Part shown: in pieces, positions 1,501 to 41,452 of the stretch
Layout: every line of letters begins with the position of its first letter
Numbering within the stretch: the first letter of the stretch is position 1
NCBI GenBank assembly: GCA_964020085.1
Contig: OZ026601.1
Span: 252,001-316,000 of the forward strand
Reading direction: 5' to 3'
DNA: 64,000 bases
From: Micromussa lordhowensis
Taxonomy: Eukaryota; Cnidaria; Anthozoa; Scleractinia; Lobophylliidae
Position numbers and translations under genes: made by a program
The notes under the pieces: generated by a model
The model's database searches: none
What the model was told of the DNA's origin: nothing
Seen by the model: only the letters and a program-made list of their open reading frames with translations

Positions 1501-4500
1501 TCAAGCCAGTGATTCGCTGGCACAATTCACCAAACGACTTGTAACATGCCTTGGGTTGTTGATCGTGCTCCTTGACAACCGATCGAGCAGGTGTCTTGGT
1601 GTAGGCTTTGCAGACTCGTGACTTTTCCTTGGCATGTTTAATCTTGGGATGGCGCCGAATCGTGGTTTCTTCTTCGTCATTTTCGCCGTTTGAACTGCAT
1701 TTGAAAATAAAGGAAAACACAAATAAGAAAGATGAAAATTAACATTCAAGAAAATTTCACAAAACCATATGGCGAGCGAGAGCATGTCTTCAATTTCTAC
1801 TGTATATCGTAGTGTAATAAACGCCACACAGGAAAATATAGACGATTCCTGAAGTCGTTTTAACTGTTTTAATCGCGTAGCCGAGTGACATACAACAAGT
1901 TCTTCCAAAGGATTCTTACCACGTGTTTTCTATCCGATTCTTACACCATGTATCATACACGAAGTGTCCCATTACACTATCCCCTCTACTACAAAGAATG
2001 AATCTCCAGATTCACGATCATTCCGTGTACTACAACAAAATAAAGTCAATCCGTTGATTTAGTCTCTTAACAAAGTCCCGAAACAGTTTGAATACTATCA
2101 AAGTTCTCGCAGTGCTCTAGCCTTCTTCAGCAATATTGGCTTCAGTTTCTTTATCCGCTCCTTGTCCTGCCTCTGCTTGTCCTCCAACATCTTTAAGCGG
2201 TCAGTTATCTGCTGTAAACTATTCAGAATCCATTCACCATAACGGTCTGGGGGTCTTCTTATGCGTGCTGGTCTTTGGCTCTGACCAACCGACTGCTCCT
2301 CTTCGACCTCCTGTTCATGTTCTTTGTTCTCTTCCCCATTCCTGCAACAACCTTGGGCATCATCTAACAGTCCACCTCCCTCAGCAGCCGGTTTATCTAC
2401 CACGTGGTCACTTCCAGCATCCTGTTCAACTTCTCCGTCCGAAGCAGATTCAGCGAGGTAGGGCGGATCCCCGCTTGCGCTCTCGTCTGGCATATCGACA
2501 ACCTCATTGTACCCTTCACTTCTAGCTGCGACCCAGACAGCCTCTTCCTCGGTTCCACTGGTAGCTATATCAGGTTCCATTGATACCACCTCCTCCGATG
2601 CTGTCTGTACCTGTTCACCAGCTCCGTTGCCTCCTACAGGTGCATCCACTGCTTCCTTGGCACCCGTTTCCTCCATGCTTTCTTCCTGCCTTCTCTTGTA
2701 CAACCGCAAGTTGTTGAAATGGACTACTCGAGACTTCCTAGAATGTCCCCTGACCTTCTTCACCCGGTATGTAACATCAGTGACTCGCTCCACTATCTCA
2801 TATGGTCCCTCCCACTGTCGATGGAACTTGTTTACTTCACCTGGTTTCAGTTGTGGATCGTAGCGCAACACTAAATCACCAGGTTGAAACAGCATATGTC
2901 TCACTCCCTTGTCGTATGCATCTTTCTGACGACGCTGAGCAACCTTGAGGTTTTGTCGCACATCACGGTATGCAGCTTCTAGGCTACCCTGAAGGTCTGC
3001 TACGAATTCAGAGTAACTGTCTTCACTGCCCATGGGCCCACTGCCCATCATTACATCCAGGGGTATCCTCATCTCCCTCCCAAACATTAGCTCAAATGGT
3101 GTATGTTCCGTGGAGGAGTGGACACTACTTCTGAAGGCCATCATGCAGTAATCTAGTTGTTCATCCCAGCGCTGTGGATCATCGTCAACTCTGGCTTTCA
3201 GCATGCTCTTAAGGGTCTTGTGCAGATTCTCAACTTGCCCATTGCCCTCTGGATGATACGCAGTTGACCGAGTTTTGTTGATGTTCAACAAATGGCACAT
3301 TTCCTCAAACACCTGGGACTCGAAGTTTCTTCCTTGATCACTGTGTATGCTGTCTGGCACGCCATACCGACAAATCCAGTTCTTTACCAACACCCTTGCA
3401 CAAGTTGTGGCACGTTGATTTGGAATCGCATACGCCTCCGCCCACTTTGTAAAACTGCATTGTACAGTCAGAATGTAGCAATTTCCCCTTCGAGACCTTG
3501 GTAAGGGGCCAACTATGTCAATGTGGATTCTTTGCATAGGGTTTTCAGATGGTATCGGATGCAGGGGTGCCTTTGGTCTAGGCCTGGGCTTGCACTTGGC
3601 ACAGGTCAGGCAGCTGCTACAATACCGATGAACTTCTTTTGTCAAACCTGGTCTCCAAAACCTAGTTTTCATCTTCTTCAGGGTCTTCATTCTTCCTAAG
3701 TGGGCACCTGTTAAACCATCATGAATTTCCATGAGCGATTCTTTAACAAGTTTCTGAGGTAAGACCATCCTGCTCTTAGCTGACGGGCCTCTTTCAGGTG
3801 ACCGCAGATAAAGTACTCCTTCTCGTAGCTCCAATAGTTCCCATTGCGCCCAGATTTCTCTTGTTGCTCGACTCAAGGGCCGAAGTTCCTCATCGGTTGG
3901 TTTCTTCCATTCCCGCAACAATTGATCCACAACTGGGCCAATATCAGGATCCTCACTTTGAGCTTGTGCCACATTCTCGAATGACCACAGATCCTTTTCA
4001 TCATCATTATGACCATGTGGCAGCCTGCTGGTGACCGTTGCTACCTCTGGCTTTGCAGATGGGGCACATGAGGGGCATTCTCCATGATTTCGCCTAGGCC
4101 GTCGAGACAAGCTGTCTGCGTTACTGTGTTGCTTTCCTGGCCGGTGTTGTACCTCAAAGTCATACTCTTGGAGGCGTTCAAGCCAACGAGCCACCTGCCC
4201 TTCAGGCTCTTTAAAGGACCTCAACCATCTCAGTGAGGAATGGTCAGTTCGTACACAGAACCGTCGCCCTAACAAATAGTACCGGAAGTAGTCAACATAC
4301 GTCACTAAAGCAAGCATTTCCAACCGAGTGGTGCAATAATTCTTTTCATGTTCGTTTAAGGAGCGACTACCATAAGCAATCACCCGCTCTGTCCCATCCT
4401 GCTGCTGTTGAGATAGAACTGCTCCAATTCCCTGGTACTGGCTTGCGTCAGTGTCAAGTATGAAAGACCCTGCCTCAGCACTGAAATTGGGGTAAGCTAG

Positions 4501-7500
4501 CACTGGCGCGCTTATCAGACGGCCTTTCAGTTCCTCGAATGCTGCCTGTTGTCCCTGTTGCCAACTAAACGACACAGTCTTCCTACACAGCTGGTACAGA
4601 GGTTCAGCAATGATGGAAAACCCAAGGATGAATTTCCTGTAATAGCTAGCAAGTCCGAGGAAGCTTTGAAGCTCTTTGACATTAAGTGGCACTGGCCATG
4701 TTTCAACAGCTTTAACTTTCTCAGGGTCAGTCTTGATCCCGTCAGAAGACACGACATGTCCTAGAAAGACAACTTCCTTTCTAAGAAATCGGCACTTAGA
4801 TGGCTTTAGTTTCAAACCAGCAGCCCTTATACGATCAAACACCAGCCGGAGACGGTGAATGTGATCTTCAAAGGTAGGAGCCCAGATGATGATATCATCC
4901 AAATACACTAAACAGTGGGTCCAGGTGAGACCACTGAGTGCAAGGTTCATTAATCTGGTGAAGCTAGCTGGGCCATTTGTCAATCCAAATGGCATCACTG
5001 TCCACTGAAACTGTCCACGATGAGTTGAGAAAGCTGTTTTAGGCCTATCCTCTTCTTTCACCTGCATTTGCCAGTACCCCGAAGCTAAATCCAGGCTAGA
5101 AAACCACTGAGCCCCACCTAAGGCCTCCAACAAATCATCTGTCCGAGGCAGGGGTATGGCATCCTTCTTCGTAGACTGGTTGAGTTTACGAAAGTCAATA
5201 CACATACGATATGTCCCATCATGTTTTCTCGCAAGCACTACGGGACTGCTCCATGGACTTTGAGACGGTTCAACCCTGCCTGTAGCTAGGAGCTCATCTA
5301 GTTGCTTATCAATAACCTCTCGCTGGTAGGGCGGTACCCGACGGGGAGGCTGCTTCACTGGCTTGCAATCACCCGTGTCGATGGCATGTTCCAAGAGGCC
5401 TGACTTTCCTAAATCAGAGCTGTCCTTCGAAAAGATATCCTCATATTCCGTTACTAGAGACGAAAATTGTCGTCTCTGGTCTTCCGACAGCCCTTCCAGG
5501 TTACCTTGTAAAAGTGATTTCCACTTTTCGTCCTCCATCGGCTGCTCATCTTTAACTACTGAGCTGTCAATAAGCGAACAAGATGGATGGGAGGTATTTG
5601 TAAAATCTGGATCCGTTTCCATAGAAACAACACGACCATCCACACTACTAATGGGGTGAAATTCAGCAACAGGAAAATCTGGCCGCAGTCTGATGGGCCT
5701 ATCGGAGAAGTTAGCAACTCGAACTATGGTCAGTCCGTCCCTGGGGACCACTAAGGAACGAGCTACATTAATTTCTGATTTGCCTCTTAGTTCCCTTGAC
5801 TCCTCCAAAATCCCAGGCGTTCCAGTGTTACGATCATATCCATTCTCCAGCTTGGCTTCGATCACTTGTTCAGTTCCGGGTTCCACTTGTATGTCATCAT
5901 TCAGAAAAATTTTGCAAACACTTGGTGTAACCTTGCAGTATCTGATTGGAATTTCAGTATGGCCCACTACAAAGGTTCCAGTGTCATAGTGAATTTGACA
6001 GCCAAAGTGCTGGAAAAAGTCTGAGCCAAGTATGCAATCATGGGATAGGCCCCGTGCAATCATGACAGCCCAAAAACAATCAATGTTTCCTACACGAAAT
6101 CTGACTTTTGTTTCTCCCAGAACCGTTAATTCATTTCCATTTGCTGTGGTCAGCGTCCCAGTCACTGGGTTGACTTTTGAGAAATGCCCACATTTTCTCC
6201 ATGTTTCTTCATTCAAAACACTAACAGTTGCACCAGTGTCTAGCAATATACCAGTTACACTATGGTTCACAAGTCCTGTAATATAGATTCCAGAGTCTGA
6301 TATGGCAGAAAGTACATTGTTACTTATAAAAACAGGGTCGTTTACCTCATTGGTGACTATTGGTGCTTGGGCCACTACTGCGGACCTCACGGGGACTGCC
6401 TGGCCCTCGGCAGGCCCCGACCTCTGTTTCCCCCTTCTTTGTATGGGCAACTCCGAGCAAAATGGCCAGGTTGGCGGCAAGCAAAACATACCACGTCACT
6501 GCGGCGCCGTGCAGTCGAAGTCGTTTCAGCTTTCCTTTCCAGCTCACGAATTTTCTCATTCATACCTAGAACGATCTCCTTAAGCTCACGAATCTCAGTT
6601 GAAATTTTGTCACCATCCGCTGAGGCACTCACCGCGTTCACCGACTTTTTCTTTTCCACGGATGGCACAGACTGACAAGCTTTACGCGCGCTTTCTAACT
6701 GACGAACAACACGAACAGCCTCCACAAGCGACGCCGGTTGACTCATGAACACCTTTTCCCGTAAATCATCGCTGATTGCCACTCCTTGAATAAACTGATC
6801 TCTTGCCAGTTCCACCTTGAACGAATAAGCTGCCTCTGGGTAGGCATTTTACACTAGCTCCATCAAATTATCGGCGAACGCTTCGAAATCCTCATTCGGC
6901 CTTTGAGACCTAGCCCGTAACTGCAATTTATAATCTTCCTTCGTCTTGCCCGAATCAAACCTTTTAACCAGTTGTGCCGTGAATTCCTCGAAGGTTAACG
7001 ATCCTGAAAGTTTCAGAAGCTCAACCGCTTTGTAGGCCGGTTGATCCAGCAGGGTAAGTAAATACGCTCGACGATCTGAAGGTTTGATATGTACAAGATT
7101 TGCATACTGAAGAAACTGCGAAAGCCAGGTTTTGAAATTTTGACCCACTGAATAAACACGCGGAGCTCGTACGTTTCTCCTAGATTCCGTTTCGCTAGAA
7201 ACCACCATGCTCTGCTTCAGGGCCTGGGATAAGGTATTCACCAGTTGCTGAATTCCAGAACTCTCCTCCTGCGATGCACTTTTTGGTTGTGGCTTCGCTT
7301 CTTGTTTTGGCGCGGGTTCGTTTGGTAGACCGCCCTCGGCGCCTCCGAGCATTTCCTGTCCTCCGTCACTCATTCCTTGGTCACTTTAGATCCCACTTCT
7401 GACACCAATGTAATAAACGCCACACAGGAAAATATAGACGATTCCTGAAGTCGTTTTAACTGTTTTAATCGCGTAGCCGAGTGACATACAACAAGTTCTT

Positions 7501-12100: not shown

Positions 12101-15100
12101 GTCATACAATCCTTTCCAGCACTTGTCTGAGGCACTTGTCTAATGTAAAAAATGGGTACCGGCAAACTTAATGCTGGGGGTAACCCTGCAATGGACTAGC
12201 ATCCCATCCAAGGGGAGTAGAAATACTCCTAGGTAGGTGTTTCATGCTACAGAAACTAGGATAAGCTCCAGCATGATGGGCCACTTGGCTTGTATGCAGA
12301 CTCAAACCCTTTCACAACTCAGATATTTTTGAACCAAGATAAATGTTGCTACCACAAATTGAATACATTTAACATGACGATAATTATAATTTCATTCTGA
12401 CTAAGATTTTCCATACCTGGAAATTACTCCAACAAGATAGGACAAAGACAAAGTCTAAAAGAAATGAAAGTTAGATCATTGATTATTGTCAAGAACAACA
12501 AAGTAATTTGGCAACAATCCTTTTTTACAAACTATAGAATGATATTATGTCATATTTTTCATTACTTAAACACAGAGCGAGCCTATAAAAGACAAGGACA
12601 TGCCACCTTTGAAGCACTTTGTTGGCTTTTTTGCGTAATGGTGGAAAGTCTAAATAACAGTCAGGAAGAAATAGCATTTTTTTGTTAAAACAGCGGAGTC
12701 ATTTACATGGAATAAAATAAAGTAAAGAATAAAAATAAAGTGGAAATAAATTGAAAGAACAAACTTAATGAATTCTCTTTATCTGTTGGGCAGTCAGTTC
12801 CACCAACTAAAATAGCAAAGCTGATGCCTGATCAACCAGCAACCTGTTTCCATTTATCTGAGCATGCTGAGAACGAAAACAAGTCTGGTAAGAGGTGATT
12901 TTGGTTAGCCTGTGAACACAGACTGATTTTAGTGGGATACTCAAAATTATTCAGATTGATTGATTGTGCAAACAAAATTGTGCAAATTGAACAATGCTGA
13001 GTTATTCTTCAAACTGTTCTATATGCAAAGTAAAGAAGTTTGAAACAAAGTACTACAAAGAAAACAAAGAGAACTTGAAAAGGGCAAAGTAAGATTTGGC
13101 CTGAATATTGACGTTAGAAAGAGATGGAAGACTCTTGGCTGAATAATCAAGGTCGAGGTAAGGGTTATCAGCCGAAGCCGAAGGCAAAAATTGTGTTCGT
13201 AAAAAGACAGACTGAATTTGAGCAGCAAGAGTACAAAAACAGCCAATGCTCACCTAATATAATCTCTTTTACATAACTGGCTCAATTTATAATAATGTTT
13301 TGTTTTGGAACCGGCTTGCATTCAACTTCTTTGCAATGCACAAATCCATGTTTATTAAATTAACCGGCTGCATCGTCATCTGGCGTGCACTTGTATCTGG
13401 GATCTTTTATGAGTTTTACTTTTCAAACTTGTTTCTCAACCACGTTAATCCAGAAAGAAGCAAAGAGACTCCATTTTCTTTTCTGGCATTAAAGAAACTA
13501 GACACAGCATTTTCTAAATTTGGGTAAGAAGATCGAATTCATATGATACGCTTTAACAAGTGGAAAAAAATTATGAAGTTGAAATAAAAAAGTCAATTAT
13601 CTTTCTAAACTCTTCTTCTGAAGTGATTGTTTAATTCACAAAGTATTACTTACTTCTATTTAATAAAACAGGAAATCACACCCGATCACTCTCCAGAATT
13701 TTGTGACAACTCGGGCGCGTTAAAATTAGACTCAAATGAATAAACCAATCAAATGGGGGCATTGGCTGTCCATTGTGATTAGCAGGCTGAACATCTCAGC
13801 CTCGTTATATAGGATCACTCCATGTTTAAATTGTACTTACAAATAGTGCCAACAAAATGACGTTTGATGGGTAGCTTCTCCTAAAAAATAAAAATAGTAT
13901 TTGTTTAAGCATTAGCGTACAATGATGCATATTCAGTGCATTTTTACATCCAGGTGCCTAGAAACAAGAAAATTATTTTTCTTTGTGTTGTATAACCTGA
14001 AACAAGACAGAAGTTGCAGAAAATTCCCACAAGTTTCAACAAAATGACGTTTGATGGGTAGCTTCTCCTAAAAAATAAAAATAGTATTTGTTTAAGCATT
14101 AGCGTACAATGATGCATATTCAGTGCATTTTTACATCCAGGTGCCTAGAAACAAGAAAATTATTTTTCTTTGTGTTGTATAACCTGAAACAAGACAGAAG
14201 TTGCAGAAAATTCCCACAAGTTTTTGTTTTATTCTTGAGGTGACAAAAATGATTGAAACTCACCTCACTCCTTCACAGCACACCAGTACAAAATACAGCA
14301 CAAAGAAGACCACACTGAAAACAACAATAAAATGCAAGAATGATGCTTGTATCTCAAAACTGGAGCTTTGCTTCTTTCAAGGATGTCTTTCTAATCTCCC
14401 CCATCCCTGGTCTCCAGCTCAGCATGGAAGGTACCCAGACAACTCTGGGTACAGTAATACGTGATGTAACACGATAATTGTAATTAGAAAGAGGAACCTC
14501 ACAAGCTTGGTCAATAAACGATTTATTACATGACATTATGAACACTATTTTCTTGCCGAAAACAGGGGGTAATCCCAAACAGGTAAGACAATCCCATCTT
14601 GCCCACTCAGGTAGCCAATTGATCACAGCAAAGGATTTGCCCCATCTTGCCCGCTTGCAGAGTTAGATAAATAATTAAAGTTATTCTACCTTAATGACTA
14701 GTTTGTACTTACTATGCTGAAATGTACAAGCCCATGCTCTCTTGTGCAAAACCTCTCACTTTATCACTACAAAAGAAAAATATTACAAATTTTCTGCATT
14801 TAGAACTACTTAACACACAATCAAAAAGAGCACTTCAACGAAGGTCTGACAAATCTTTACAAACCCCTCCCTCAGGCGAGATTACACAATAACAGTATGG
14901 AAGTAGGGGAAGGATTTTGCAAAGATTTGTCATGTCAAAAAACATGTGAGGGAGATGGAGGGGAGCTCCAGGGCATGCTGGATGACGTGTTTGGGATCAG
15001 GGTAATGGTACAATCATGTTAGAAAAAGTGATTTGAGAAAAAAACTTTGCAAAAGTCGCTAATTAAAAATTCTCAGATTGTCGCAAAAGTATTCGAAAAC

Positions 15101-18100
15101 AAATCTTTTGACTTCTTTTTGTGTTTGCTTGGTTTTGTGAAAGCAATGAAAGTTAGGCATTCGAGCGAATTTTTGGACTGTGTTCAAAATGTTAAGGCAA
15201 AGAGTTGCCAATTATTATAAAAATAAAAACAAATTGCAGAGCATGAAAAGGCCTAGGTACAAGCTACAGTGTTCTGCAGGACTTGTAGGTAGCTGTTTTC
15301 CCTGTAAGGTTGCTTAAGAAAGGACAACAGGAGACAAAGGTAAACTATTCATTCTTGTCATTCCGTTATTTAATCTCTTCGTACTCAGCAAGATTGTGTG
15401 TTCTCTGTGGTGACATCTACTTCAAGTTCACAACAATTTTGATTATTAAAAACTAGATCATTGGATAATGCAATTCAAGAGTTTTCATTGGCTTAGCCAT
15501 CATGATATATGAGCCACCATACCATGCACTACAAATATGGTAAGCATGAGCGTAATTTTTTGTGGGATGTTTTGATTTTTATTTCATTCCAGTTTTCTAT
15601 ATTTTGCAATGTTAAATTAATAAAACAACACTCCACTCGTGCTGGTTTGATATGAGATGGGTATTGCTAACTCGGCGCCATGCGTCTTGTTGTCTATCTA
15701 CTGTCTCACATCCAATGTGCCCTTGTGTAATAATAAATAATTGGAAAATTGAACATATTAACAATATGGTAAAACTGTTGTTTAATTTGTGATGTAAGAT
15801 AACCAAAAGTGCATAACCATTCGATTCTTACTTGAATATGAACAAGCAAATAGTTCCCACAGTTGTTAACAGCTGCAGCATCAGGACAGCAAACACCTGC
15901 AAAACATGATGAAGCCAACTTAATTTGCAAACATGTCAATAAGTATTCCTGGTCATTATTAACTAATTTAGGCAAGATGAGTTAGTAGTAATTGAATTAC
16001 TACTAACTCATCTTTACTACAAATAACTTTAATAATAATAATAATAATTATAATAATAATAGCAATGCATTTGTCAGCGCATCTAAAATTCTCAATGCGC
16101 TTACAGTGAGAAGCTAAAACTCTCAATCATTTACACAATCTTAGGTAATGAAAAAATAAGTCGATAAAATGCGTCTTGTTGTCTATCTACTGTCTCTGTG
16201 TAATTATTACTAACATGGAGGGCATAAACTAAAGGCTATGAATTCAAACAACAGAAGACATGGAAATTGTCATTTTCACCCAGATGGTGATCCATCCTCT
16301 TTGTTCAATATTTCAAAGCCTAACAATAATCCTCTCGTTTGAAAATGAGTATACCAGACAAATTTCTGTTGCAAAAAATACCTCACTGCTGAAAATTTCA
16401 AATAACACATCTTTTGTAACTGATATTGCAAGCTGGGACATCTTTTATCATATTTTGTGGACATGCTGATAAATTCGCTATGTTTTGAAAGTCAGATCAA
16501 AATGATGAAACAGGGAAAGCTTCTGAAAATTTCTCTGTCAGTCATCTTCAGGAAAATTTGAATTAAAATTATACTGATGAATGGATCATTACTTGATCAG
16601 ACTGTACTGCAGACAAAATGGACAAAAAATGTATTAATTGCCTTGAATCTCAGAATGCAAGACATTGCAAAGACTTGATGACTAGGTAGGTAGTCATGGA
16701 CACTTCCATTTTTAGGACAAAATTCCTGGCTTAGCCTGGCATAAAGAATAGCTGAGCAATGAATTGAAATAGCCATTTTTAATTGATTCAGAAGCCAAAT
16801 CTTTCCATACTTTAAAAGTCAAGGTATTAGGTTTTGCTGATAAATAGTTTGGAACCTGAACAGGGCCCTAAAAGGAAGGTGACTAAGATTGACGCTGAGC
16901 TAACTACTCCATCCACACAGCTCTTCTCCCTGACCACTGAACAGATGAACCTTGCACACTAGCAATGTTACAAATTAACATAATTATATTAACAAGGATA
17001 TAATGATATGACAGACTCACCCGCCTTATAAATCCTGTGATCAAAATATATCCAGCAAACAGAGAAAAAAAAGACATTGAAATTTTTAGTACGAAGTATA
17101 TTAAAGTACCAGTGTAATAGAGCTGTCATCAATCGAGTGTCGTAAAACCAAAACCAAGCAAATTACTTGCCTATTAGACTACTCAGCCAATCTCGAACCG
17201 TAGTAAAACCAAAGTAATTGCCTTATTACTTTTGACACTCAAAATGGAAACTACTCTAACAGTTACTGCAGTTATGAATAATAATCAAAATATTGCAACA
17301 AGGGAATGAAGTAATCACAATTGAAAAACCCTGATCTAATTTTATTTATTTGGCGAATCACTGTATTGGAATGAATATGCATTGTCTAGTTGGTTTCATT
17401 CATATTGTTTGGAGAAATAAAATGTCTGTTTGAACTGGCTTTAATAAAAGAATTCCAAACAAGGCTGCTAGAAACTATTTTTTGCATACATCATTTCTCA
17501 ACAATGAAGCACAAACCAGCGAACCTGATCATCAATAAAATTGGTCGGCTGGAGTTTATTATGCTCCTTTAAAGCATAAACCTTCCTACAGCGTATACTT
17601 TATCAAGTTATAATGCAGGCGAGCTACATGTATATCGCTAGTTTGCTCAAAAATTTCCTGCTGCACTCCGCTCAGCAGTCTTGTGCGCCTTGTGCTTTTC
17701 TATACACTTGTTTCATGTTTTTAAAAACTCCTGTCAATTAATGCACATGGATCATGTATCTTTTAATGAAGCACTCCAGCTATAAGTACGTGACAAATCA
17801 ACTGCACAGGGAATCAGTCAGAAGGGATATCTGTAACTTTAATACATGATCATATATGAAATAAAATTAAATATCAACCTAACTTGTACAAATATAATCG
17901 AAATTGCAGTAAAAAGAAATTTTCACTTATCAAATCAAATAAGAATCAAAGGTTAAAACATATAGAGTGTAACTGTACAGTATTAAACTTCTGATCAATG
18001 AAACAAAGGAAATACGCCATTTCGTGTCTCAGCTTGCATGACGTAATATGGTAACTTTTAGAAAGCGGAATATGATGGTCAAGCCCGTTTAGTACAACTT

Positions 18101-18521
18101 GTACAGTCTTAACAGAACAAAGTAAGACAACCATACCAAGCCTGATGGATTTGTCGCTAAAACTGACGATGGCAGAGAATTCAGATGCGCCATATTCCAC
18201 ATCAGGTGATGAGTAAATCGGAGGAGGCGGCGGAGCCGGAGGAATAGGTTGTGTTTGGTACGCGTAATTTCCATATGCATTGGGTGCTGAGGGCTTGCCT
18301 CCGGTCCCTACAGCCGATTCGTATGTCGGCGGAGGAGGGAAAGCTGGATTAGAAGGTACCGTTTCAACGGGCGGTGGGTAGGCAGCTTGGTTGGAAGGCG
18401 GAGGGTAGCCCCCGGCTGAACCATAGTTCATCACTGCTGGCGAAGGATATTGACTCATGGACTGCTGTGATGGGTAAGGAGGTTGGTTATTGCCCGATGG
18501 ATATGGCGGATTTGTGGACAT
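9165..18521 (-). CDS. TMBIM/Lifeguard (GRINA-like) Bax-inhibitor-1 family protein
   Basis: Twelve exons (-): 18521-18137, 17034-17021, 15896-15832, 14766-14713, 14314-14264, 13880-13841, 12454-12417, 11690-11645, 10631-10590, 10267-10169, 9954-9907 and 9314-9165. All keep phase, giving 343 residues. The first about 110 residues are Pro/Tyr-rich and include PPTY (64-67), a possible WW-domain ligand. Then come seven hydrophobic segments. Family landmarks are SDKSIRLGFIRRVF before TM1, TKYDFTTWGG, FLAYDVQLVMGGRKYEL and a short charged C-terminus. Members sit in Golgi/ER/lysosome membranes and modulate Ca2+ leak and apoptosis. Assignment among GRINA, FAIM2/LFG2 and TMBIM1 is not decided here. A 14-nt microexon encodes most of GFIRR. 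Confidence 0.93.
10682..11235. mobile_element. Long inverted-repeat MITE in TMBIM intron
   Basis: The left end CTTTAAAGTGCCCATGTCAT recurs inverted at the right end as ATGGGCACTTTAAG. The arms continue imperfectly through most of the element, including paired TTTACCTCTGTAAAT / ATTTACAGAGGTAAA near the centre. It shares the TTTAAAGTG terminus with the elements at 30113 and 62884. Confidence 0.75.
12135..12320 (+). repeat. SINE fragment, GGGTACCGGC family
   Basis: It contains AATGGGTACCGGCAAACTTA, GGGGTAACCCTGCAATGGAC and AGCATCCCATCCAAGGGGAG, shared with the copies at 20941, 32826 and 58303. The head is missing or degraded. It lies in a TMBIM intron. Confidence 0.75.
13850..14223. repeat. Perfect 187-bp tandem duplication overlapping a TMBIM exon
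   Basis: 13850-14036 and 14037-14223 read identical. The unit carries the acceptor and the first 31 nt of the 40-nt TMBIM exon 13880-13841. The copy at 14067-14037 keeps the acceptor and coding start but has no splice donor, because the junction falls before the last 9 nt of the exon. Confidence 0.9.
15975..16013. repeat. Perfect 39-nt palindrome
   Basis: Two 19-nt arms, AGATGAGTTAGTAGTAATT and its exact reverse complement, flank a single central G at 15994. It lies in a TMBIM intron, followed by an (AAT)n-like run at 16029-16060. The transcript would form a tight hairpin. Confidence 0.85.
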
Positions 18522-18712
18522 GACCGCTTGTCAGATCACCGACGTTCCCACAGTATCAAAGAAAAGATAAAATAACTTCGACGAATACGAAGAAAATATG
18601 GCACCGTCGCTCTTGTCAAATAGGCGCCAGCTGCTGGTTGGAGCTCTTTTCAGGTCGTGACGAACGTCACGTGGCTCATTACACTACGTCATCCATGACA
18701 TTTGTTGTACTT

Positions 18713-18909
18713 CATCGCGCGATAACTTAATTTATCGCGCGATAAATTCAATTTTATCGCGCGATAAAATTGAATTTATCGCGCGATAAAATTGAATTTA
18801 TCGCGCGCGATAAAATTGAATTTATCGCGCGATAAATTAAGTTATATTAAGTTATCGCGCGATAAAGTACAATTTATCGCGCGATATTTCACGTCTATCG
18901 CGAGATAAA
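18713..18909. repeat. Array of nine palindromic TATCGCGCGATA units
   Basis: Nine copies of the palindrome (T)ATCGCGCGATA are spaced about 20-24 bp by AT-rich linkers such as AAATTGAATT that are partly palindromic themselves. One unit has an extra CG and the last reads TATCGCGAGATA. The array starts about 190 bp upstream of the TMBIM start codon (18521, minus). It may be a regulatory array of CpG-rich sites or simply a satellite. Confidence 0.85.
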
Positions 18910-19317
18910 ATAAAATGTGGCATGTCCCCTATGGGCCACCGTACGTTTTGGGCGTTATTTGTACTCTACGAAGTGCAGTTGGATAATTTAATAACACTTT
19001 GTCGATGAAAATAGGATGAAGGAAATGCGCCGCAAGAGTGGGTCGGTCTCAGACCATGTCGAGTGAACAAATGGCCGACACGTAAAACAAAGGTAAGATG
19101 CATAGAAATTACGATTAGTTCGGGCCCTTGTGGGAAACTTCGTACAACAAAATGGGGAGTTCAAGAACTCGAGGTTGATAATATGGTGTTTGACTAAGGC
19201 TTGGAAATGCGTTTTATTTAGAGTTTTCGGGATTTTGGAAAAAAATCACGGGTACGCGTACGAACAATCTCAATTCTTTATTTGATCCGGATTTTATCAT
19301 TAATATTTTATTTTACC

Positions 19318-19411
19318 CTCAGTCTGCATTTTACCCCTGGTCTGCAGTCTGCAGTCTGCATTTTACCCTCAGTCTGCATTTTACCCCCGGTCTCCAGTCT
19401 GCGTTTTACAC
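19318..19411. repeat. Short tandem repeat of CAGTCTGCATTTTACCC
   Basis: Four imperfect copies of a roughly 20-bp motif, some with CTGCAGTCTG duplications, lie in the intergenic region. No function is visible. Confidence 0.7.
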
Positions 19412-19604
19412 TGACCGGTTTGATTACCTATTATTTTTACCTGTGATCGGTTATTTTATTTGATTCATTTTTATTTCTTCTTTCTTATTCATTATTTTGT
19501 ATATGTAAATGTCGTAAATTATTACTTCGTAATTAAAAGGACGTAAAAGCAGCAATTTTGTAGCAATCTTAATGAAGAGAACAAGACTTTTAAATTTTAA
19601 AGAA

Positions 19605-19637
19605 GACATGTTTCGGCAACTCCTGTGCCATCGTCAG
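19605..19637 (-). ncRNA. Hammerhead-ribozyme-like core, downstream copy
   Basis: The minus strand reads CTGACGA, a GGCA...TGCC stem-loop, then GAAAC-AT-GTC. CUGANGA and GAA are the invariant catalytic segments, and A-C/G-U with an AU loop matches the two-base-pair stem III of small type I hammerheads. One extra U precedes stem II, and stem I with the outer flank pairs only about two bases, so activity of this copy is uncertain. Confidence 0.45.
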
Positions 19638-19750
19638 TTTGCGGATGGAATAACAATGATGAACAATATATAGAGGAAAATTAGAATAACAATGGTATGA
19701 TACAACAATAGATTACAAAGAAAGATAAAGATTTACATGAAACAATTGTT

Positions 19751-19783
19751 GACATGTTTCGGCAACTCCTGTGCCATCGTCAG
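19751..19783 (-). ncRNA. Hammerhead-ribozyme-like core, upstream copy
   Basis: This core is identical to that at 19605-19637. Here the base after GTC is the first base of the next unit (AACAATTG...). Stem I pairing with the upstream GCAAA is not evident by eye, so folding must be tested over the full unit. Confidence 0.45.
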
Positions 19784-20059
19784 TTTGCGGATGGAATAAC
19801 AATGATGAACAATATATAGAGGAAAATTAGAATAACAATGGTATGATACAACAATAGATTACAAAGAAAGATAAAGATTTACATGAAACAATTGTTGATT
19901 TAGGGAGGGTTTAATGTAACATTTGCATTTAAACGTCAGCCTTCGCTCATATGTGATATGTGGTACTGAAAATAAAATTACTTACTTACAGTAAAGGTAA
20001 ATTACTGCAAGTGAAATTAATCTGCTGAAATGAAAATATACTGACTGATTTTTATTTCA

Positions 20060-20530
20060 TTATTTTTCATTATTTTTGTGATAATGACAATATTGTTCAT
20101 TCTTTGGAACACTTTTAATACATCGTTTTAATCGTTTATTCGTTTTCAAGCATTGCACGAGCGCAGATGTACTGTCATTGAATTGATGAATTTTACAGAA
20201 GTTAGTGTTCTCCAAAACCTTTGATTTACATGGGCTCTCCAACCGATTTAAAGCCTGACACGTCGGTAAGTGAATCTGTTCTTCCACAGTGCGAGTCAGT
20301 CTTCTTTGAATTTCGCGTTCCTTTTGCCTCCTGTTCCTCTTATACAGGAGTTTGCTTAGTTTTGCTTGATGTAGTATTCTGAAATCTTGAAGTTTCACAC
20401 CAAAGGGCCCTTGTTTTCGCTTCCCTGGTTTCTTTTTGTTGAATAGTTCTTTCCAACACCTCTTTTTCTTTTGGGATCTTTTTGACAATCCACAGTTGTG
20501 TCGCTTTAAATCTTTCGCTGGTGCAGCCAT
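20060..20530 (-). CDS. Small basic protein with zf-C3Hc3H-type zinc fingers (KANSL2/INO80D-like)
   Basis: Single-exon frame of 156 residues from ATG at 20530; an in-frame ATG at 20554 would add eight. The N-terminal half is very Lys/Arg-rich (KKKRCWKELFNKKKPGKRK), suggesting nuclear or nucleolar location. The C-terminal half has two Cys-Cys-Cys-His units, C-x7-C-x8-C-x2-H and C-x8-C-x8-C-x2-H. The pattern matches the double zf-C3Hc3H domain of KANSL2 (NSL complex) and INO80D, although the protein is far shorter than either. I infer a chromatin or nucleolar role; the exact orthologue is not recognised. It is divergently transcribed from TUT1. Confidence 0.7.
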   Translation of the reverse strand: MAAPAKDLKRHNCGLSKRSQKKKRCWKELFNKKKPGKRKQGPFGVKLQDFRILHQAKLSKLLYKRNRRQKEREIQRRLTRTVEEQIHLPTCQALNRLESPCKSKVLENTNFCKIHQFNDSTSALVQCLKTNKRLKRCIKSVPKNEQYCHYHKNNEK

Positions 20531-20633
20531 GACTGGTTCGTAAACAACAAACAACCAGGCGCAAGAACGAAGAGTAGAGACTGGGGTTGATTTTTAGCTT
20601 TTTCGTTCCCAGAGCCCGCGTCATTTAAAGAAG
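20531..20633. promoter_or_regulatory. Short bidirectional promoter region, zf-C3Hc3H / TUT1
   Basis: Only 103 bp separate the start codons of the divergent genes (79 bp if the upstream ATG is used). No TATA box is seen. The region must hold both 5' UTRs and the core promoter elements unless transcription starts inside the neighbour. Confidence 0.5.
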
Positions 20634-23600
20634 ATGGCTGCTCACGGAACTGTTCGTGGAAAGCAAGTCTTTTGTGATGTGTGTGAAGTCACTTTACCTT
20701 CAGGTAAGCATGGCTGTGAATAAAATTGGTGAAGAAAGTGATATGCTTAAGCTTATACTTACGTGGGATTGTCACACTATGTTTTGGGCCACCTGACTAG
20801 ATGCTGCGAGATGGAAAGAAAGTCCAGTGAAACTTCAATCTGACTCGGTTTTGTCCACCGTCACGTACGTTTAGCGGAGACTTTCCTCTTTTATGTCCAT
20901 TCATTATCTGTAGTTCCTAGCCAAGGAGCAAGGTAGGAAAGGTAAATTCTGCATACGAGCCAAATTACCCATCAGGCCGGAGCTTATCCCCGTTTCAGTA
21001 GCATGAAGCGACTTGGAGTACTTTACTCCCCTCTGGATGGGATGTAGTCCATCGAAGGGTTAGCTCCAGCATTAAATTCGCCGGTACCCATTTATAGACC
21101 TTGGTAGAGTAAGGCACTGTGCGAGTAAAGTTTCTTGTCCAAGAACACAACACCATGTCTCTGGCTAGCGCTTGATACCAGACCACTTGAAGCGTAGTTG
21201 AGTGCACTAAGTATGAGGCCACTGCACCACCTAGTCAAGGAGCTGCAATTTTAGATTGTTTCCTAGCGGGTAATATCCTTATTTTTTTAAAGTTGCACCT
21301 GGAGTCCACAAAACAATGCTGAACCTTGGCTGAAACCAGGCTAGTCTACTACTAGATAAAATAAACTTGCAGATACTTATGAACTAATGAACTAATGAAG
21401 GTACAACATAGCAAAGCAGTGACTTATCTTAAGGTTGACAGTGGTGAAGTAAGTAATGGTGCATATTTTTGTGGATAAAGAAGATACTTCCTTCTCTTCC
21501 ACTCCCTTCCTCCCATGACCACCTTGTTTTAATGACATGACTGTGTTTTTGGCTTGAACAAAATCTCTGTAAAACCCTAAAAACAAAGTGGAATTTTTAA
21601 GTAACAGTTGCACTGATTTAACAAAAAAATACATTGGTTACGTTTTCTGTGCTGCAAGCAGGAGTCATTGGGGATCAATGGCCAGTCTGTCTCCTAATAA
21701 TTGAAACCTACCGTATTTAAACCACCACTCCATTGATACAATCAAGTTTTTATACATGGTTCCACAATACAAATATACCAAGGACTGTCAAAAATTCACC
21801 TGTATATCTGAGGAAGAATATACTGTAGTTATTCTAGATCTTTACCAAAATTATGTTGCAGCCTCATTGTTGCCAACCCACAATAAAGGGAAAAAACACC
21901 AAAGGTTGTTGAACTTGAAACAGGAAAGAGAGAGCTCATCAAAGAAAAGCATTTATGTTCGGGGTTTTCAGAAGTCTGGATCTATTGAAGAAGAGTTGAC
22001 TAAATACTTCAATGTGTATGGAAAGGTCTCGAACATCTTCTTGGACAAAGACAAGGTACGTACCTCAAACACCTAGATCATCACTGAGCCATATTTTTGA
22101 CACTGCATATAGATATAACCATAGCATGATGTTGGCATAAACATTACCAGTGACACTTTAAGAGTTACTTTTAGAAACAGTTTATTTTCACAGCTTGAAC
22201 AGATGCAGCAGTGTATTGTCATTCCTTTTTTTCCTGTGTGCAGCGATGGCATCAAATACATGTACCTCTTTTCGGAAAATCCTAAAAGATATAATAGTGG
22301 ACGTTGCCTAAAGGCTGGTTTTTACTAGCTCATAAGCATAAGCTGACGTACGCAGACGCAGTGAGATGTTGATAATTAGCACCTTTTGTTAGGAAAATTT
22401 TGAACAAAAGTTGCTAATTATCAACATCTAACTGCACCTATGTATGTCGCGTTATGCTTATGCACCAGTGGAAACTAGCCTTAACTTACAAGAAGTACAA
22501 TAGCCCAATTTCGATATATTAAAATTCAGCCTAAAACAATAGACCTCAGCACGAGGCTCGTGGGAATAACTACAGAGTTTGTGGGGTTTATTCCCACGAG
22601 CCTCGTGCTGAGGTCTATTGTTTTAGGCTGAATTTTAATATATCGAAATTGGGCTATTACTTCGCTCATCTTTCAATAATATTTATTATAATAATTTCAG
22701 TCTGACCATGCTCACAGAGCAGAAGTATGAAGTATTATGCTGCTGTTTATAAAGCATGGAATATAAAATGGTGTTGTCTTTCCTCATTCCAGTTGTAAGG
22801 TTCCTATTTGGAATGTTCATTGGCAACATATATGAAAAAAATATTAATAAATGTTTAGTACGTCTAGTAAAGTTTTAAATGCCAAGCAATTATTATGAAC
22901 TGCATTACTAGCATACGTCTGGCTTCATGCTCTCTTGTGAATTGAACAATGTTCAGTTTAACAGTGAACTTTTAGATTCTTTTTTGTCAATTTTGAGACT
23001 GAAAGGTTCAATTTTTGTTTCTTCCTTTTCAAGGGCATTTTTGCTATTGTGGAGTTTGCTGATAAAGAAAGTGTATCCGTGGTACTGACTCAGGAATCAC
23101 TACCTCTTTTAAATGGCAAATGGCTAACAGTGAAAGAAAGAACCGTAAACAAAGCAGCCCTTCAGGGTAAGGTACAAACATCAAGGAAGCGCAAACGCAA
23201 TGACTCACAAGAAGAAGGCCAGCAGGATAACAAAGAGATGGCTTTCTTTTTGTCAGAGGATCTCATTACCAAACTTAAGTCATCTCGCACAGTAGGTAGA
23301 AGTTTTATGCTTGTTCATATATCATTGTCTGGGTGACTTTGATTTCAGCATTGAATTTTTTTTCTTGGACCTTAATTCAACATAAGGTTTAGGGAGTACT
23401 ACAGTGTATTTCCCATACTGAGCAATGCTGTTGCTTGTAATTTTTTTAGTTGAAGCTGCTGCTGAATAGTATTTGAAGAAACAGTAGAGGCAGATATTAT
23501 TACAAGCTTGCTTTCATAAACTTACTCAAAATTATTGTTTAAAGTAAAACCAGTGGTCAGCACTTCTGGGAACTACTTGAGTTTTAAAACGTTTTTATTT

Positions 23601-26600
23601 TCTCCTACCCATTTCGTGTGACTAGCGCACACTTCATCAGGGAGTTTTACAATACAACCAAGTATATACCTGTACATATACCTAAACAAAGAATTCCACA
23701 TTTCGTGAAAACACGTACATGTATCTAACTAACTATTCGGATGCACAGTTTCCACTGCAGGCCCAAATAGTGGTGTCACATTTAAAATATGTCATTGCCT
23801 TGATTATTTTTTCGCCTTTTTCCTTGACCCATTACTGCATGGTTTAGATATCCATAGGTTGTTTTCCGAAACATAGAATTCTGTGTTTAGATATATATAC
23901 AGTTATACTTGGTTGTATTGTAAAACTCCCTGGTGAAGTGTGCACTAGTCAAATAAAACATGTAGGAGAAAATAAAAAAGTTTTACAACTCAAGTAGTTC
24001 ACAGAAGTGCTGCTCACTGGTTTTACTCTAAAACAATCTTGGTGTCATACAGTTGAAACCTGCTATCCTGAACTCAATGAGAAATAGTCAGAGATGTCGG
24101 GGTGTTGTGGCAGAGGGGGGCCTTGAGGTGGAAGATATTAAATGACTGAAATAGTATATTTTTCAAGGGAAAATGATTTTTCATTCTTCGCGACCGGCAA
24201 AATTCGCTGTTTACTTGCCCTAGACACAACAGCTACTCAGAGAAAATATATATATATATATGTGGTGGGCTCAGCAAGGAAATCGCTTTGTGCCAGCTAC
24301 TTGAAATTCTTCTCCTTCTACTTCAAATGTTCGGGAGAATGCTGAGGAGGGAGTTTGAGATAACTGTGTTCAAGAGACATGTAGCAAGGTTCTGTTGTAT
24401 CTCTCTAGAAAAAGCGTAACCTCTGTGAAGATCAAATTCTAGTAAGGTGACTCCCTTGGTTTGTAATGCATACTCACCCTCTTTGTTTCATTTGGTAATT
24501 TTTGGATTCTACTACTATTTGTTTGCAGGTCGAGGAACAATTGAATTTGTTGATGCAACACTTGTGTTTAACTGATGAAGACATCAAGTTAAGAAGACTA
24601 GTTTGTCAACTGTTACAAGAAGTGTTTGGTGAAGTCTATCCTGGCGTGTCAGTGGTGCCTTTTGGTTCTACTGTTAGTGGAGTTGGCTGGACAGGAAGCG
24701 ACTTGGATGTCTGTTTATTAACAAGTGTTACACCCTCTCAGTGTGAAGAGACTGGTGTTGATTACTCTTTAGTTATTGACATGTTGCGTAGCTTTGCTCC
24801 TGGCTGTACAAACATCATACCAGTCTTGACTGCTAAATGCCCTCTTGTCAAGTTCACACACCAGCCATCTGGCTTGTCATGTGATCTATCGGTGAATAAC
24901 AGGTATTTTTAATGTTCTGACGTATATGACTGTACTGAAATCAAATGGGAGGTTTGTATGGGCTAAGTATTTTAACTTAGTTTGTGGCCAAACTAACTGA
25001 AGGAAGCCAATGGAAGAAAGCCAACTAAAATATCTCTCACAATAGTAATAGTTTTTATTTGCTTCTCAAATTGATATCCCTAGGCACATGTAAAGTTTAA
25101 GTCCATTCCAGTTGGTAAGACAAGAGGTGGATGGTCTGTGTCCCTTATTAGTGCTCTGTCCTCAATTAGTGTCACTGGTACTAGAACAAACACTCTTTAA
25201 TAAAGGATATGCATGGATGTGTGGATAAGACTGGATATATGGCTTATCCATGCTGCTATGTCAAGTAATTACATTAAACTTGCTGCTCTTAGATGGGATG
25301 TTTTCCTTCCATATTACTAACTTCCCAGCAATTTTTCAAGTTGTCCAGGGAATTTTCATTTCTATGTATACTCCTTGTGAGGCATAGTATATCATGGCTA
25401 GTGCTCGGGCTTTATACAGAGTGGTCAGGGTTTCAAATGTGGTACAAGTGTTTTGGCTAGACCGTTCACTCTCACAGTACCTCTCTCTACCCAGGTGTAT
25501 ACCAAACCTAGCCATAGTCATTTCCTGACCTCTCAAGAAAGAAATAGTGTACCCCTTCGCCATCAGAGTATATAAGATGTCATTCTGCACTTCACCTATA
25601 CCTTTCATTTCTTTTTAGGCTTGGTGTTGCAAACTCAAATCTTCTTCGCTGCTACATGTCTCTTGATCCCAGGATCCCTCAGCTGGTGTTTATCATGAGA
25701 GCATGGGCAAAAGCCAAAGTTCTCACTGTTGGAAGACACTTGTCAAGTTATGCAGTGACCCTCATGGTGTTGTACTTCCTGCAGACACAGAACCCACCTG
25801 TTATTCCATCGTTGCAGCAGGGATTTGAGTCATGGATCAAAGAACAATCACATTCATGTAACAAAGAAAGTTGTGGCTACCACAAGTTGCTTGTTGAAGA
25901 GCTTGAGTCCAAGATGATTGATAACTGGAACTGTTCATTCTTCACAGATGTTGCCAGACTTTCTTCATCAAATAACAACAAAAGTCTGAGTAAGTAAAAA
26001 TTATTGTTTGTATGTGTCAGTGACCAACACAAAAGCCTATGCTACTTTGGTCACTGAGCACACTTGATCTTGGCTATTTATTGTTAGTATAAATCTGTTA
26101 GCACTCTATCACAAATGCCGTTCTCTGATTGGCTACGCTACTCACTATCTATTCTGTGATAGATAGTGATTAGCATAGCAGTGTACCCTCGTTAGCAAAA
26201 TGATGGCCGCTTCTTGGCATTTTCGAAGTGTCTGTGAAGAGGACTAAAATTTCGAGTAAAACAAAAAGAAATCTGACAAATCTGAAACTTGAATCTGATT
26301 TAATTTGTTGTGTTTGGCGTGGTTTGAAAGTTTTGATATTACAGTCATTCCCGTAAAACCGTGAACACCAGAGAAAATTTATGGAATGTTTATTGTTTCG
26401 TGACCAATCAGAAGTGAGATGAAACCAACAAGCTGGCTTTTTCTTCCAACGAACTGGCTTTTCATCCACGACTAACCTTCAAAAACCAAACTACAGAATT
26501 TGGAATAGACCTAGAAGCGAAATTTTACAACGGTGCAAGTTTTCCTTCTCAGCTACAAAAGAATACGGATCGAAAATCACCAATCACAGCAACTAGCATG

Positions 26601-39065: not shown

Positions 39066-41452
39066 CTATAAGCAAAGACAAGGTCAGATACTTACATGTA
39101 ATAAAAACCACGAAATGTAAACAAAGCAATAAAAGTTCTATTATAAAATTCTGCCCTCTCTTATTACATCCAATTCCACATCACCTTTATAAACTTTACA
39201 AAGATAAATGTTTTACTCAATCAACAGTTACATATATGGCAGGTTTCATGTCAAAAGCCGAAAGCTTTGAAACTGTACACCAAGTAGGCCAAAATCCTAC
39301 GCTGCTGGTAGCATACCGTCCGCCCGTATGCCAATAATTGCTCTGGGCCCCAGCCCCCAGGTCTTTTGGCGCGATGCCGCCGCGAAAGAGAGGTGTTATA
39401 AAGTTAAGAATAGCGTGACAAAGCGTGACAAACAATTTTAGACTAAGCGTTGATTACGTAATTACAGCCTGAAATATGATCTATGTGAAAGCCTTTATTG
39501 TCAAAGTATCCGTGCAAATATTCCTACTACGTGTCGCGTGGAATCTAAAAAACTAGTTCGTGCTTTCCGTTTCTAAACACGTAGGAACACTAGTTCCTTC
39601 CAGCAACAAAGTAGGCATAGGATTCTGCCCTATAGCTTGTAGTTCCGCAGGATTTACGTATAAAGTGTTTACCTACATGTGTTAAGTTTATGTCAAAGGA
39701 AACTCTTATTACCCTCTGTATTTTGTATCACGTATGATTTAGCTACCATTATGTATATAAGAACCTTGATTCTAGCAATAAAGGATTCAGTTGATTGTAC
39801 AGCAGTAGAGTGTCCTTCACTCCGTGTGTGAGCTCGCGGTAAACCCAGCGTTCGCCCAAGCAGCAAAAACAGTTCGACGCTAATCGACCCTCAGCCGTAA
39901 TTCTACTACAGAGGCGTTTAAGAGAAATCCAATGCAACCAATGCAATTTTTTTTCTGTAGGGGGGATTCGAGTTTGTGGGACTGTTGTGATCACCGGTCA
40001 GTACATTGTTCTGAGAACTATAGGTCCCGACAACTATACAGTTGGGACAGCAAGTTCTAGTGTTTCTTCCAATCAAGAGCTAGCATGAACCGCGAGTGTT
40101 CACTGAAAATCAGCGAAAAGCAATACAGTGGAACCTTGATTTCACGAAAAAGATCGTAAATTTATGTTATTTACTGGCCACAGCCGCCACAGGTCAAGTA
40201 ACCTTTCGTGGTTATGCCAGGTTAGTGAGGTTATGCCAGTTGGGCGAAATATTGCCTTCATCACTGGCTTCAGTATGCCGACGTCTCGTTGATCGCACGC
40301 CGGTTCACCGCAAAATATTAAAACCCACGCTGAAGATCTTTGGCGTAACCTAAACTAAATTCACTCTGGGATGTAGGCACTGGTCAATATTTTGTGGAAG
40401 TTCTCTACCTTGTCGTTTCCAAAACAAAATGCTTCACAGATGTATAGTCACTACTGCACATGTCTCTTAACACTAAAGCTTAGCTACAGTCACGTTCTGG
40501 CCCTCTCTGTTTCACAATGCTATGTTCTCAGGAGAGGAGCATTGTGTTGTGTGACAGGGATTGGGTCAGAACTGAGCTAGGAGGGCTAGTGTGCTAGGTA
40601 TTTGAGTTTTCTGTCTCACAAATCTTTATGGCATAGTTGGATCTGCTCACAAGCTAACTTGCGATGATCAGAATCCCTGCTCTTGTTCCCTTAAGGACCC
40701 TCATAGCTCAAGTGGTACATATAGTCTCTTCTTTAAAGATTATTTTTATATTTCAAGGTTACTAACTCATCGTAAATGACATGTTGGCTTCAGAGTTTAT
40801 TTTTAATTTTAGTCGGTGTGATGTTTTACGATTTTACCGACATATACCATCTAAATGTAGTTAAAGGTTGAACCCAGGAGTATCATTAACCAATGAAATA
40901 TAATAACAATATAATACAGTTCTTAAAAACGCATTATACGTAAGTCTCAATGCTTTTACATAAATGTGATCGTTGACGTGACGGTACGTAGCTAGTCCTG
41001 CAGAAAAATTCAAGACAGTTGTCGGTGACTGATCTGTTTTGACACCTTAAGCATAAGTTATCCTCAGAGTCAAGTGAAAAGTTGTTTGTCACTTGATGAT
41101 GTAAGGCAACTTTTAGTATGACTTTGAAGATAACTTGTAGCTTAACAAGAGTACTTCCACGAAGTCGCTCATAAACCCTAATTAAACTTCACCGTAGAAC
41201 ATCTACCTACTCAAGTCGTTTTCTCTTTCTTGATGTTGCAACTTGTTTGTCTTCCATCTGAAGGTTGCGGTACAATTTTAACACGAATAACTCTTCTACG
41301 AAGTCACAAGCTTATAGGAAAGACAATAGATCAAGAGAAATAGAGTCCGCCATGTTGGAAGGGAAGAGTCTGGTGCTGAATACATAATACCCCAGCAGTC
41401 TTCGCGGGAAAAAGTGTTATGGGGTTTTTGAAAGCTTTGGCAAAAAGATAGT
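39066..41452. other. Gene-poor interval, Nop6-like 5' side to F8A promoter
   Basis: No conserved ORF. At about 39680-39912 a segment starts TGTGTTAAG and contains TATATAAG (39752), AATAAAGG (39778) and a CTACTACA end. This is the layout of a solo LTR, but no target duplication is visible. The last 100 bp before 41453 hold the F8A 5' UTR. Confidence 0.3.

What the first reader, a model, noticed from the sequence alone, without database searches (positions are those of the whole stretch)
19605..19896. Tandem dimer whose unit boundary coincides with a hammerhead-type cleavage position
Two identical 146-bp units meet exactly after GTC of a minus-strand motif CTGACGA - GGCA/TGCC hairpin - GAAACATGTC. 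CUGANGA, GAA and the tiny AC/GU stem III are hammerhead hallmarks. Retrozymes and some Penelope-like elements are known to form tandem dimers cut to unit length this way. Against activity: one extra U before stem II, and stem I not obvious with either flank. If functional, this is a very small (146 nt) circRNA-producing retroelement.
Basis: partly seen in the sequence, partly recalled or inferred. Interest (0 to 1): 0.75.

Follow-up and report, generated by a model that had tools for sequence, protein, structure and literature searches.

The report
Duplicated coral DNA with broken ribozyme relic
A 146-base stretch of stony-coral DNA has been copied once, side by side, and carries the core of a self-cutting RNA (a hammerhead) but lacks one of the arms needed to cut, so it looks like a relic in an ordinary duplication and not a tiny working mobile element.

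Summary
In detail: 19605-19896 is two identical 146-bp units, and the minus strand of each ends CTGACGA-T-GGCA(loop)TGCC-GAA-ACATGT-C at the unit edge (placeable at 3 positions, as 2 bp are shared). The hammerhead resemblance exceeds chance: a model built here from 37 predicted viral-contig hammerheads ranks the two copies first and second in the window (22.0 and 19.5 bits; next 12.9; three of the model's own members gave 46-59). The extra U is no objection: 26 of 26 viral-contig matches allowed A or U there carry U. But stem I is absent at GUC (0 pairs at the junction, 2 at the outer copy), and a unit cut there would have to begin with the partner of ..GCAAA, yet begins AACAATTGTT. No target-site duplication was found, and the RNA folds worse than nearly all shuffles. 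A second perfect dimer (187 bp, 13850-14223) has no hammerhead. Best reading: a decayed minimal hammerhead core, of a type published for stony corals, in a recent DNA-level tandem duplication; not a retrozyme. The Rfam blank is uninformative: Rfam also missed 14 of 14 predicted complete hammerheads. Copies elsewhere in this genome could not be checked (ten unanswered searches).

The parts
19605..19750 (-). unit copy next to the downstream flank (3' copy in minus-strand sense)
   Evidence: identical to 19751-19896
19751..19896 (-). second unit copy (5' copy in minus-strand sense)
19751..19783 (-). hammerhead-like core at the unit junction: CTGACGA-T-GGCA..TGCC-GAA-ACATGT-C; 0 bp of stem I after GUC
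   Evidence: best model hit in the window, 22.0 bits over 19715-19788
19605..19637 (-). same core at the outer edge; 2 bp of stem I with the flank after GUC
   Evidence: 19.5 bits over 19581-19642
19606..19611 (-). ACATGT palindrome of the outer core (same at 19752-19757); could pair between the two copies as a shared stem III
   Evidence: sequence; inference from the double-hammerhead mechanism described in reviews
19887..19896 (.). AACAATTGTT palindrome that begins the unit on the minus strand (same at 19741-19750); not complementary to ..CCGCAAA before the core
   Evidence: sequence
19897..19898 (.). GA shared with the unit start: 2-bp microhomology at the duplication edge

Best explanation
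A relic of a minimal (Penelope-like or type I) hammerhead core, without the 3' strand of stem I, lies in AT-rich DNA of a stony coral. A recent DNA-level event (slippage or microhomology-mediated end joining, using the shared GA) duplicated 146 bp in tandem, with one edge falling by luck, or by descent from an old element end, at the former cleavage position. It is neither cut nor circularised today. Shown: the dimer, the core, the missing stem I at GUC, the microhomology, an unrelated perfect dimer nearby. Inferred: descent from a hammerhead element, the duplication mechanism, inactivity.
For: Core and stem II score above the window's background (22.0 and 19.5 against 12.9 bits). That lies inside the 15.4-27.9 bits of 11 of the 14 viral-contig sites given to that fail my stem I test (of the other three, L007 scored 46.1 and L003 and L006 were not listed up to E = 1), and far below three of the model's own members (46.0, 55.2, 59.2; these match by construction). 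Stem I is 0 and 2 bp after GUC. The 5-bp alternative at the junction (GCAAA/UUUGU after a UUC 37 nt downstream, stem III then 1 bp) is reached by 19% of shuffles within 40 nt. No target-site duplication (longest word shared by the 20-nt flanks 5, P 0.24). The dimer RNA folds at z = +2.53, 200 of 200 shuffles as stable; the monomer circle at z = +1.6, 490 of 500 as stable. A second perfect two-copy dimer, 187 bp, scores at most 6 bits with the model. Stony-coral genome (95% to Desmophyllum pertusum, 76% to Nematostella); Acropora millepora holds more than 6000 such motifs, 1508 canonical and the others like minimal PLE variants (PMC7229834).
Against: The edge at GTC is about a 2% coincidence under random duplication. 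ACATGT could provide an inter-copy stem III. No other copy was found to prove descent, so the core could be chance. The model aligns the outer copy to another GUC further down the flank with a gapped stem I, and 3 bp can form there after a UUC; both weak, but not nothing. My stem test covers only the type I order, so some comparison sites that fail it may be permuted working ribozymes. Minimal PLE hammerheads depart from the canonical form, and one needed its protein to cleave (PMC11167929, passages).
Confidence: 0.6

Rival explanations
1. Chance core: the motif is an accidental match in an ordinary tandem duplication and has no ribozyme ancestry.
For: The descriptor was written after seeing the motif, and about 0.06 hits per window are expected by chance; no stem I at GUC; no relatives in the two collections scanned, which are not meant to hold corals.
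Against: Model E-values 1.6e-4 and 1.1e-3 in 64 kb (rough), best and second in the window; the genome type is rich in such motifs.
Confidence: 0.2
2. A working 146-nt retrozyme-like element: the dimer transcript cuts itself as a double hammerhead through an inter-copy ACAUGU stem III, and the monomer circularises and is reverse transcribed.
For: Unit edge at GTC; core and stem II intact; ACAUGU is self-complementary; dimeric action is described for newt and PLE hammerheads (passages of reviews); coral retrozyme dimers are published.
Against: No stem I at GUC in either copy; the monomer start cannot pair with the 5' strand of stem I; poor self-pairing, whereas published circles are highly self-paired; 146 nt lies just below the published sizes (about 170-400 nt RNAs, 150-450 bp repeats); no target-site duplication.
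Confidence: 0.08
3. Insertion of a hammerhead-cut RNA: the 5' product, ending at GUC, was reverse transcribed into the genome, then duplicated; this would explain why the 3' strand of stem I is missing exactly at the cleavage position.
For: The hammerhead-like sequence ends at GTC at both the junction and the outer flank.
Against: No target-site duplication; of the ORFs listed beside it only two were scanned, without a PLE match; no other copy shows where such an element began.
Confidence: 0.07
4. Assembly artefact: the perfect duplication does not exist in the animal.
For: Two perfect two-copy dimers of 146 and 187 bp in 64 kb.
Against: No read evidence either way; perfect recent duplications are also ordinary biology.
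Confidence: 0.05

Closest known systems
Metazoan non-LTR retrozymes with type I hammerheads (Cervera and de la Pena 2020, PMC7229834; abstract and sections 13, 14 and 17 read)
   Same: Stony-coral host, short tandem repeat, low G+C (32%), hammerhead core
   Different: Unit 146 bp against 220-240 bp in Acropora; no stem I at GUC; no target-site duplication found; not highly self-paired
Minimal hammerheads of Penelope-like elements and Terminons (seen in passages of PMC7761336, PMC6155905 and PMC11167929; the two primary papers were not held)
   Same: Core with GAA followed by a short stretch before the cleavage residue; little or no stem III
   Different: The PLE example in PMC11167929 has stem I and stem II; here stem I is missing, and no PLE coding sequence was recognised in the two neighbouring ORFs scanned
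Predicted viral-contig type I hammerheads with an inserted U after CUGANGA (loci L001, L005, L008 and others)
   Same: CTGANGA-T-GGC..GCC-GAAAC core, including the inserted U
   Different: The complete ones have stem I, a stem III hairpin and GUH; no tandem unit

Membership tests
Hammerhead ribozyme | Core CUGANGA ... GAA with stem II between | tested here: met
   one U is inserted before stem II, as in 26 of 26 viral-contig matches (22 distinct) that were allowed A or T there
Hammerhead ribozyme | Stem I next to the cleavage site | tested here: not met
   0 bp at the junction, 2 bp at the outer copy after GUC; alternatives: 5 bp after a UUC 37 nt downstream at the junction, reached by 19% of shuffles, and 3 bp after a UUC at the outer copy
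Hammerhead ribozyme | Stem III ending in U16.1 and H17 | tested here: inconclusive
   AC/GU with a 2-nt loop in cis, or a 6-bp ACAUGU duplex between two copies (sequence; inference)
Hammerhead ribozyme | Match to Rfam hammerhead models | tested here: inconclusive
   no hammerhead at gathering or E up to 10; but at gathering 0 of 14 loci with predicted complete stems were found at their motif (18 loci scanned in all), and 0 of 4 at E up to 10
Hammerhead ribozyme | Self-cleavage | not testable with these tools
   needs in vitro transcription
Metazoan retrozyme | Tandem repeat of 150-450 bp with low G+C | tested here: inconclusive
   146 bp, 32% G+C, two copies; just below the size range
Metazoan retrozyme | Monomer begins with the 3' strand of stem I, so that the circle re-forms the ribozyme | tested here: not met
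   unit begins AACAATTGTT; the bases before the core are CCGCAAA
Metazoan retrozyme | Stable, highly self-paired RNA | tested here: not met
   200 of 200 shuffles of the dimer and 490 of 500 of the monomer circle fold at least as well
Metazoan retrozyme | Target-site duplication, when present | tested here: not met
   no shared word above chance in the 20-nt flanks; the longest in 40-nt flanks are 6 nt and not at matching distances; weak, as the source says 'when present'
Metazoan retrozyme | Many dispersed copies; circular RNA | not testable with these tools
   own-genome search unanswered ten times; no RNA data
Penelope-like element | RT and GIY-YIG ORF with flanking pLTRs | tested here: inconclusive
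   two ORFs near the dimer were given to Pfam: 20060-20593 has a zf-C3Hc3H match below its cut-off (20.4 against 27 bits) and 17946-18530 has none; the other 18 of 20 ORFs listed in 18000-21500 were not scanned

The most novel reading that the evidence does not exclude
A 146-nt element whose tandem dimer cuts itself as a double hammerhead, with a 6-bp ACAUGU stem III between copies and a weak or protein-assisted stem I, would be among the smallest circRNA-making retroelements and would relax the stem I requirement.
Probability: 0.06. Interest if true: 0.65.

Novelty: already known. Interest (0 to 1): 0.2.

Why it matters
As a relic it adds little: a stony coral is published to hold thousands of minimal hammerheads and many hammerhead-bearing tandem repeats. 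It is useful as a caution: a hammerhead core at a repeat edge is not enough, and the quick test is whether the unit start can pair with the bases before CUGANGA. If it did cleave, it would be an unusually small circRNA source with a new way round stem I.

Tried and rejected
Rfam on the window and on two stretches of it: no hammerhead; rejected as evidence after controls on viral-contig loci also came up empty at their motifs (L005 did hit Hammerhead_II, but at 4638-4729, not at its motif 5762-5829). Relatives of the core in viral contigs and prokaryote genomes: none; these collections are not meant to hold corals, so this says little. CTGANGAWG..CGAAACATGTM in viral contigs gave two loci, L027 and L028; one search listed no match in either up to E = 1, and they were not read further. 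The 23640(-) motif in viral contigs: none. Other cleavage positions for a stem I: one 5-bp option, chance level. Target-site duplications: none above chance. Similarity of the unit to the rest of the window: only short matches, E 0.024 or worse. The second hammerhead-like site, 23640(-), has a 4-bp stem I but scores at background (11.2 bits). A sigma-70-type promoter and terminator scan was run; it is not meant for animal DNA and was not used.

Two primary papers on PLE hammerheads were not held, so their consensus is known here only through passages of reviews and of one PLE paper. PMC7229834 was seen as abstract and sections 13, 14 and 17. Other papers were seen only as search listings. Hammerhead residue numbering and the rule that a cut monomer begins with the 3' strand of stem I are from general knowledge.

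Full report
What is there. The window is animal DNA, most likely from a stony coral: the protein read from 41432-42004 is 95% identical to one of Desmophyllum pertusum, the best named match, and 76% to one of Nematostella. At 19605-19896 two 146-bp units are identical. On the minus strand each unit ends in CTGACGATGGCACAGGAGTTGCCGAAACATGTC. Because the right flank also starts with GA, the junction can be placed at three positions, one of them exactly after GTC; by luck that would happen in about 2% of duplications.

Is the hammerhead likeness more than chance? In 200 Mb (one strand) of random DNA with the window's dinucleotide make-up, a descriptor of core, stem II, GAAA and GUH was met 89 times (a site can count more than once), or at most 0.057 per window; the window has it at this dimer and at 23640(-). 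The descriptor was written after seeing the motif. As a more independent test I collected viral contigs with CTGANGA-W-GGC..GCCGAAACRT (26 loci) and the same without the inserted base (55 loci, 56 matches). All 26 of the first set carry T, none A; some are near-duplicates, 22 are distinct. Sixteen of 26 and 33 of 56 have a stem I of at least 4 bp and, with stem III, at least 9 pairs. That test covers only the type I order, so some failures may be permuted hammerheads. Under a stricter rule 37 distinct sequences, 12 with and 25 without the inserted U, were aligned and made into a covariance model; they were selected partly for stem I, so the covariation in stem I is not independent proof.

With all filters off the model ranks the two copies first and second in the window: 22.0 bits (E 1.6e-4) and 19.5 bits (E 1.1e-3), next 12.9 (E-values rough). 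One search scored 19 loci. Three hold members of the model and match by construction (L042 59.2, L008 55.2, L026 46.0 bits). Of 14 sites that fail my stem test, 11 scored 15.4-27.9 bits, L007 scored 46.1, and L003 and L006 were not listed up to E = 1. A site in L012 with a 4-bp stem I scored 36.0; L027 and L028 were not listed; three further rows (L016 twice, L039 once, 19.9-25.8 bits) lie away from the pattern sites. So the likeness is real, but it rests on the core and stem II.

Could it cut? The inserted U is not an obstacle, since predicted hammerheads with good stems have it. ACAUGU is its own complement and could make a 6-bp stem III between the two copies, as in the double hammerheads that reviews describe for newt and PLE ribozymes (passages). 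But stem I is missing at GUC: 0 bp at the junction and 2 bp at the outer copy. This matters doubly, because an RNA cut after GUC must begin with the 3' strand of stem I; the unit begins AACAATTGTT, while the bases before the core are CCGCAAA. The model's own way out at the junction, GCAAA with UUUGU after a UUC 37 nt downstream and a 1-bp stem III, is reached by 19% of shuffles within 40 nt. At the outer copy it uses another GUC further into the flank, with a gapped stem I; ungapped, 3 bp after a UUC is the best there.

Does it look like a retrozyme? Published Acropora retrozymes have units of 220-240 bp, complete hammerheads and highly self-paired RNA (PMC7229834). Here the 292-nt RNA folds less stably than all 200 shuffles (z +2.53), and the 146-nt circle less stably than most (490 of 500 shuffles as stable). 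No target-site duplication was found.

What else explains the dimer? At 13850-14223 lies another perfect two-copy dimer, 187 bp, with no hammerhead (best 6 bits). Perfect short tandem duplications thus arise here without a hammerhead, or the assembly makes them. Two bases of microhomology at the 146-bp edge fit a DNA-level event.

Rfam. There is none. But the same library missed the motif in all 14 loci with predicted complete stems among the 18 that I gave it at gathering, and in all 4 given at E up to 10. The blank therefore says little.

Verdict. Most likely a truncated minimal hammerhead core, of the kind published in thousands for a stony coral, in a recent tandem duplication. The claim of a working 146-nt circRNA element fails on stem I. 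What I could not do is find other copies: the own-genome search did not complete in ten tries, and no collection of coral genomes was at hand.

Noticed in passing
13850-14223: A second perfect two-copy tandem dimer (2 x 187 bp) with no hammerhead core; recent duplication or assembly artefact.
   Followed up: partly
23538-23679 and 23891-24032: 142-bp inverted repeat (86%), 211 bp apart, with a minimal hammerhead-like motif in one arm (23640 minus: CTGATGA-A-GTGTG..CACAC-GAAATGGGTA, 4-bp stem I) and a decayed one in the other (ending ACATGTAGGAG); looks like a MITE or inverted PLE ends.
   Followed up: partly
L001, L005, L008, L009, L010, L013, L014, L015, L018, L024, L025, L026 (IMG/VR contigs): Predicted hammerheads with an inserted U between CUGANGA and stem II (T in 26 of 26 loci when A or T was allowed), complete stems in 16 of 26; Rfam 15 did not find the motif in the nine of these twelve that were tried.
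   Followed up: partly
L039, L061, L067, L078 and similar: Viral contigs with CTGACGAGGC..GCCGAAACAT hairpins shortly before an ATG that fail the type I stem test: possibly permuted hammerheads or leader hairpins.
   Followed up: no
47860-48187 and 51193-51574: Arrays of 21-bp AT-rich repeats in opposite orientation flank an integrase-like ORF (49488-50432 minus, PF24764) and a second ORF (50246-50710 minus, not scanned): looks like a DNA transposon with repeat-built terminal inverted repeats.
   Followed up: partly
2098-7385: Ty3/gypsy-like retrotransposon, minus strand: long pol ORF (protease, RT, RNase H, integrase) and a gag-like ORF (PNMA match).
   Followed up: no
22705-22835: Rfam SNORA11 match on the plus strand, just above the gathering score (36.7 against 36).
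   Followed up: no
18714-18911: Tandem array of 22-bp units built on the palindrome ATCGCGCGAT.
   Followed up: no
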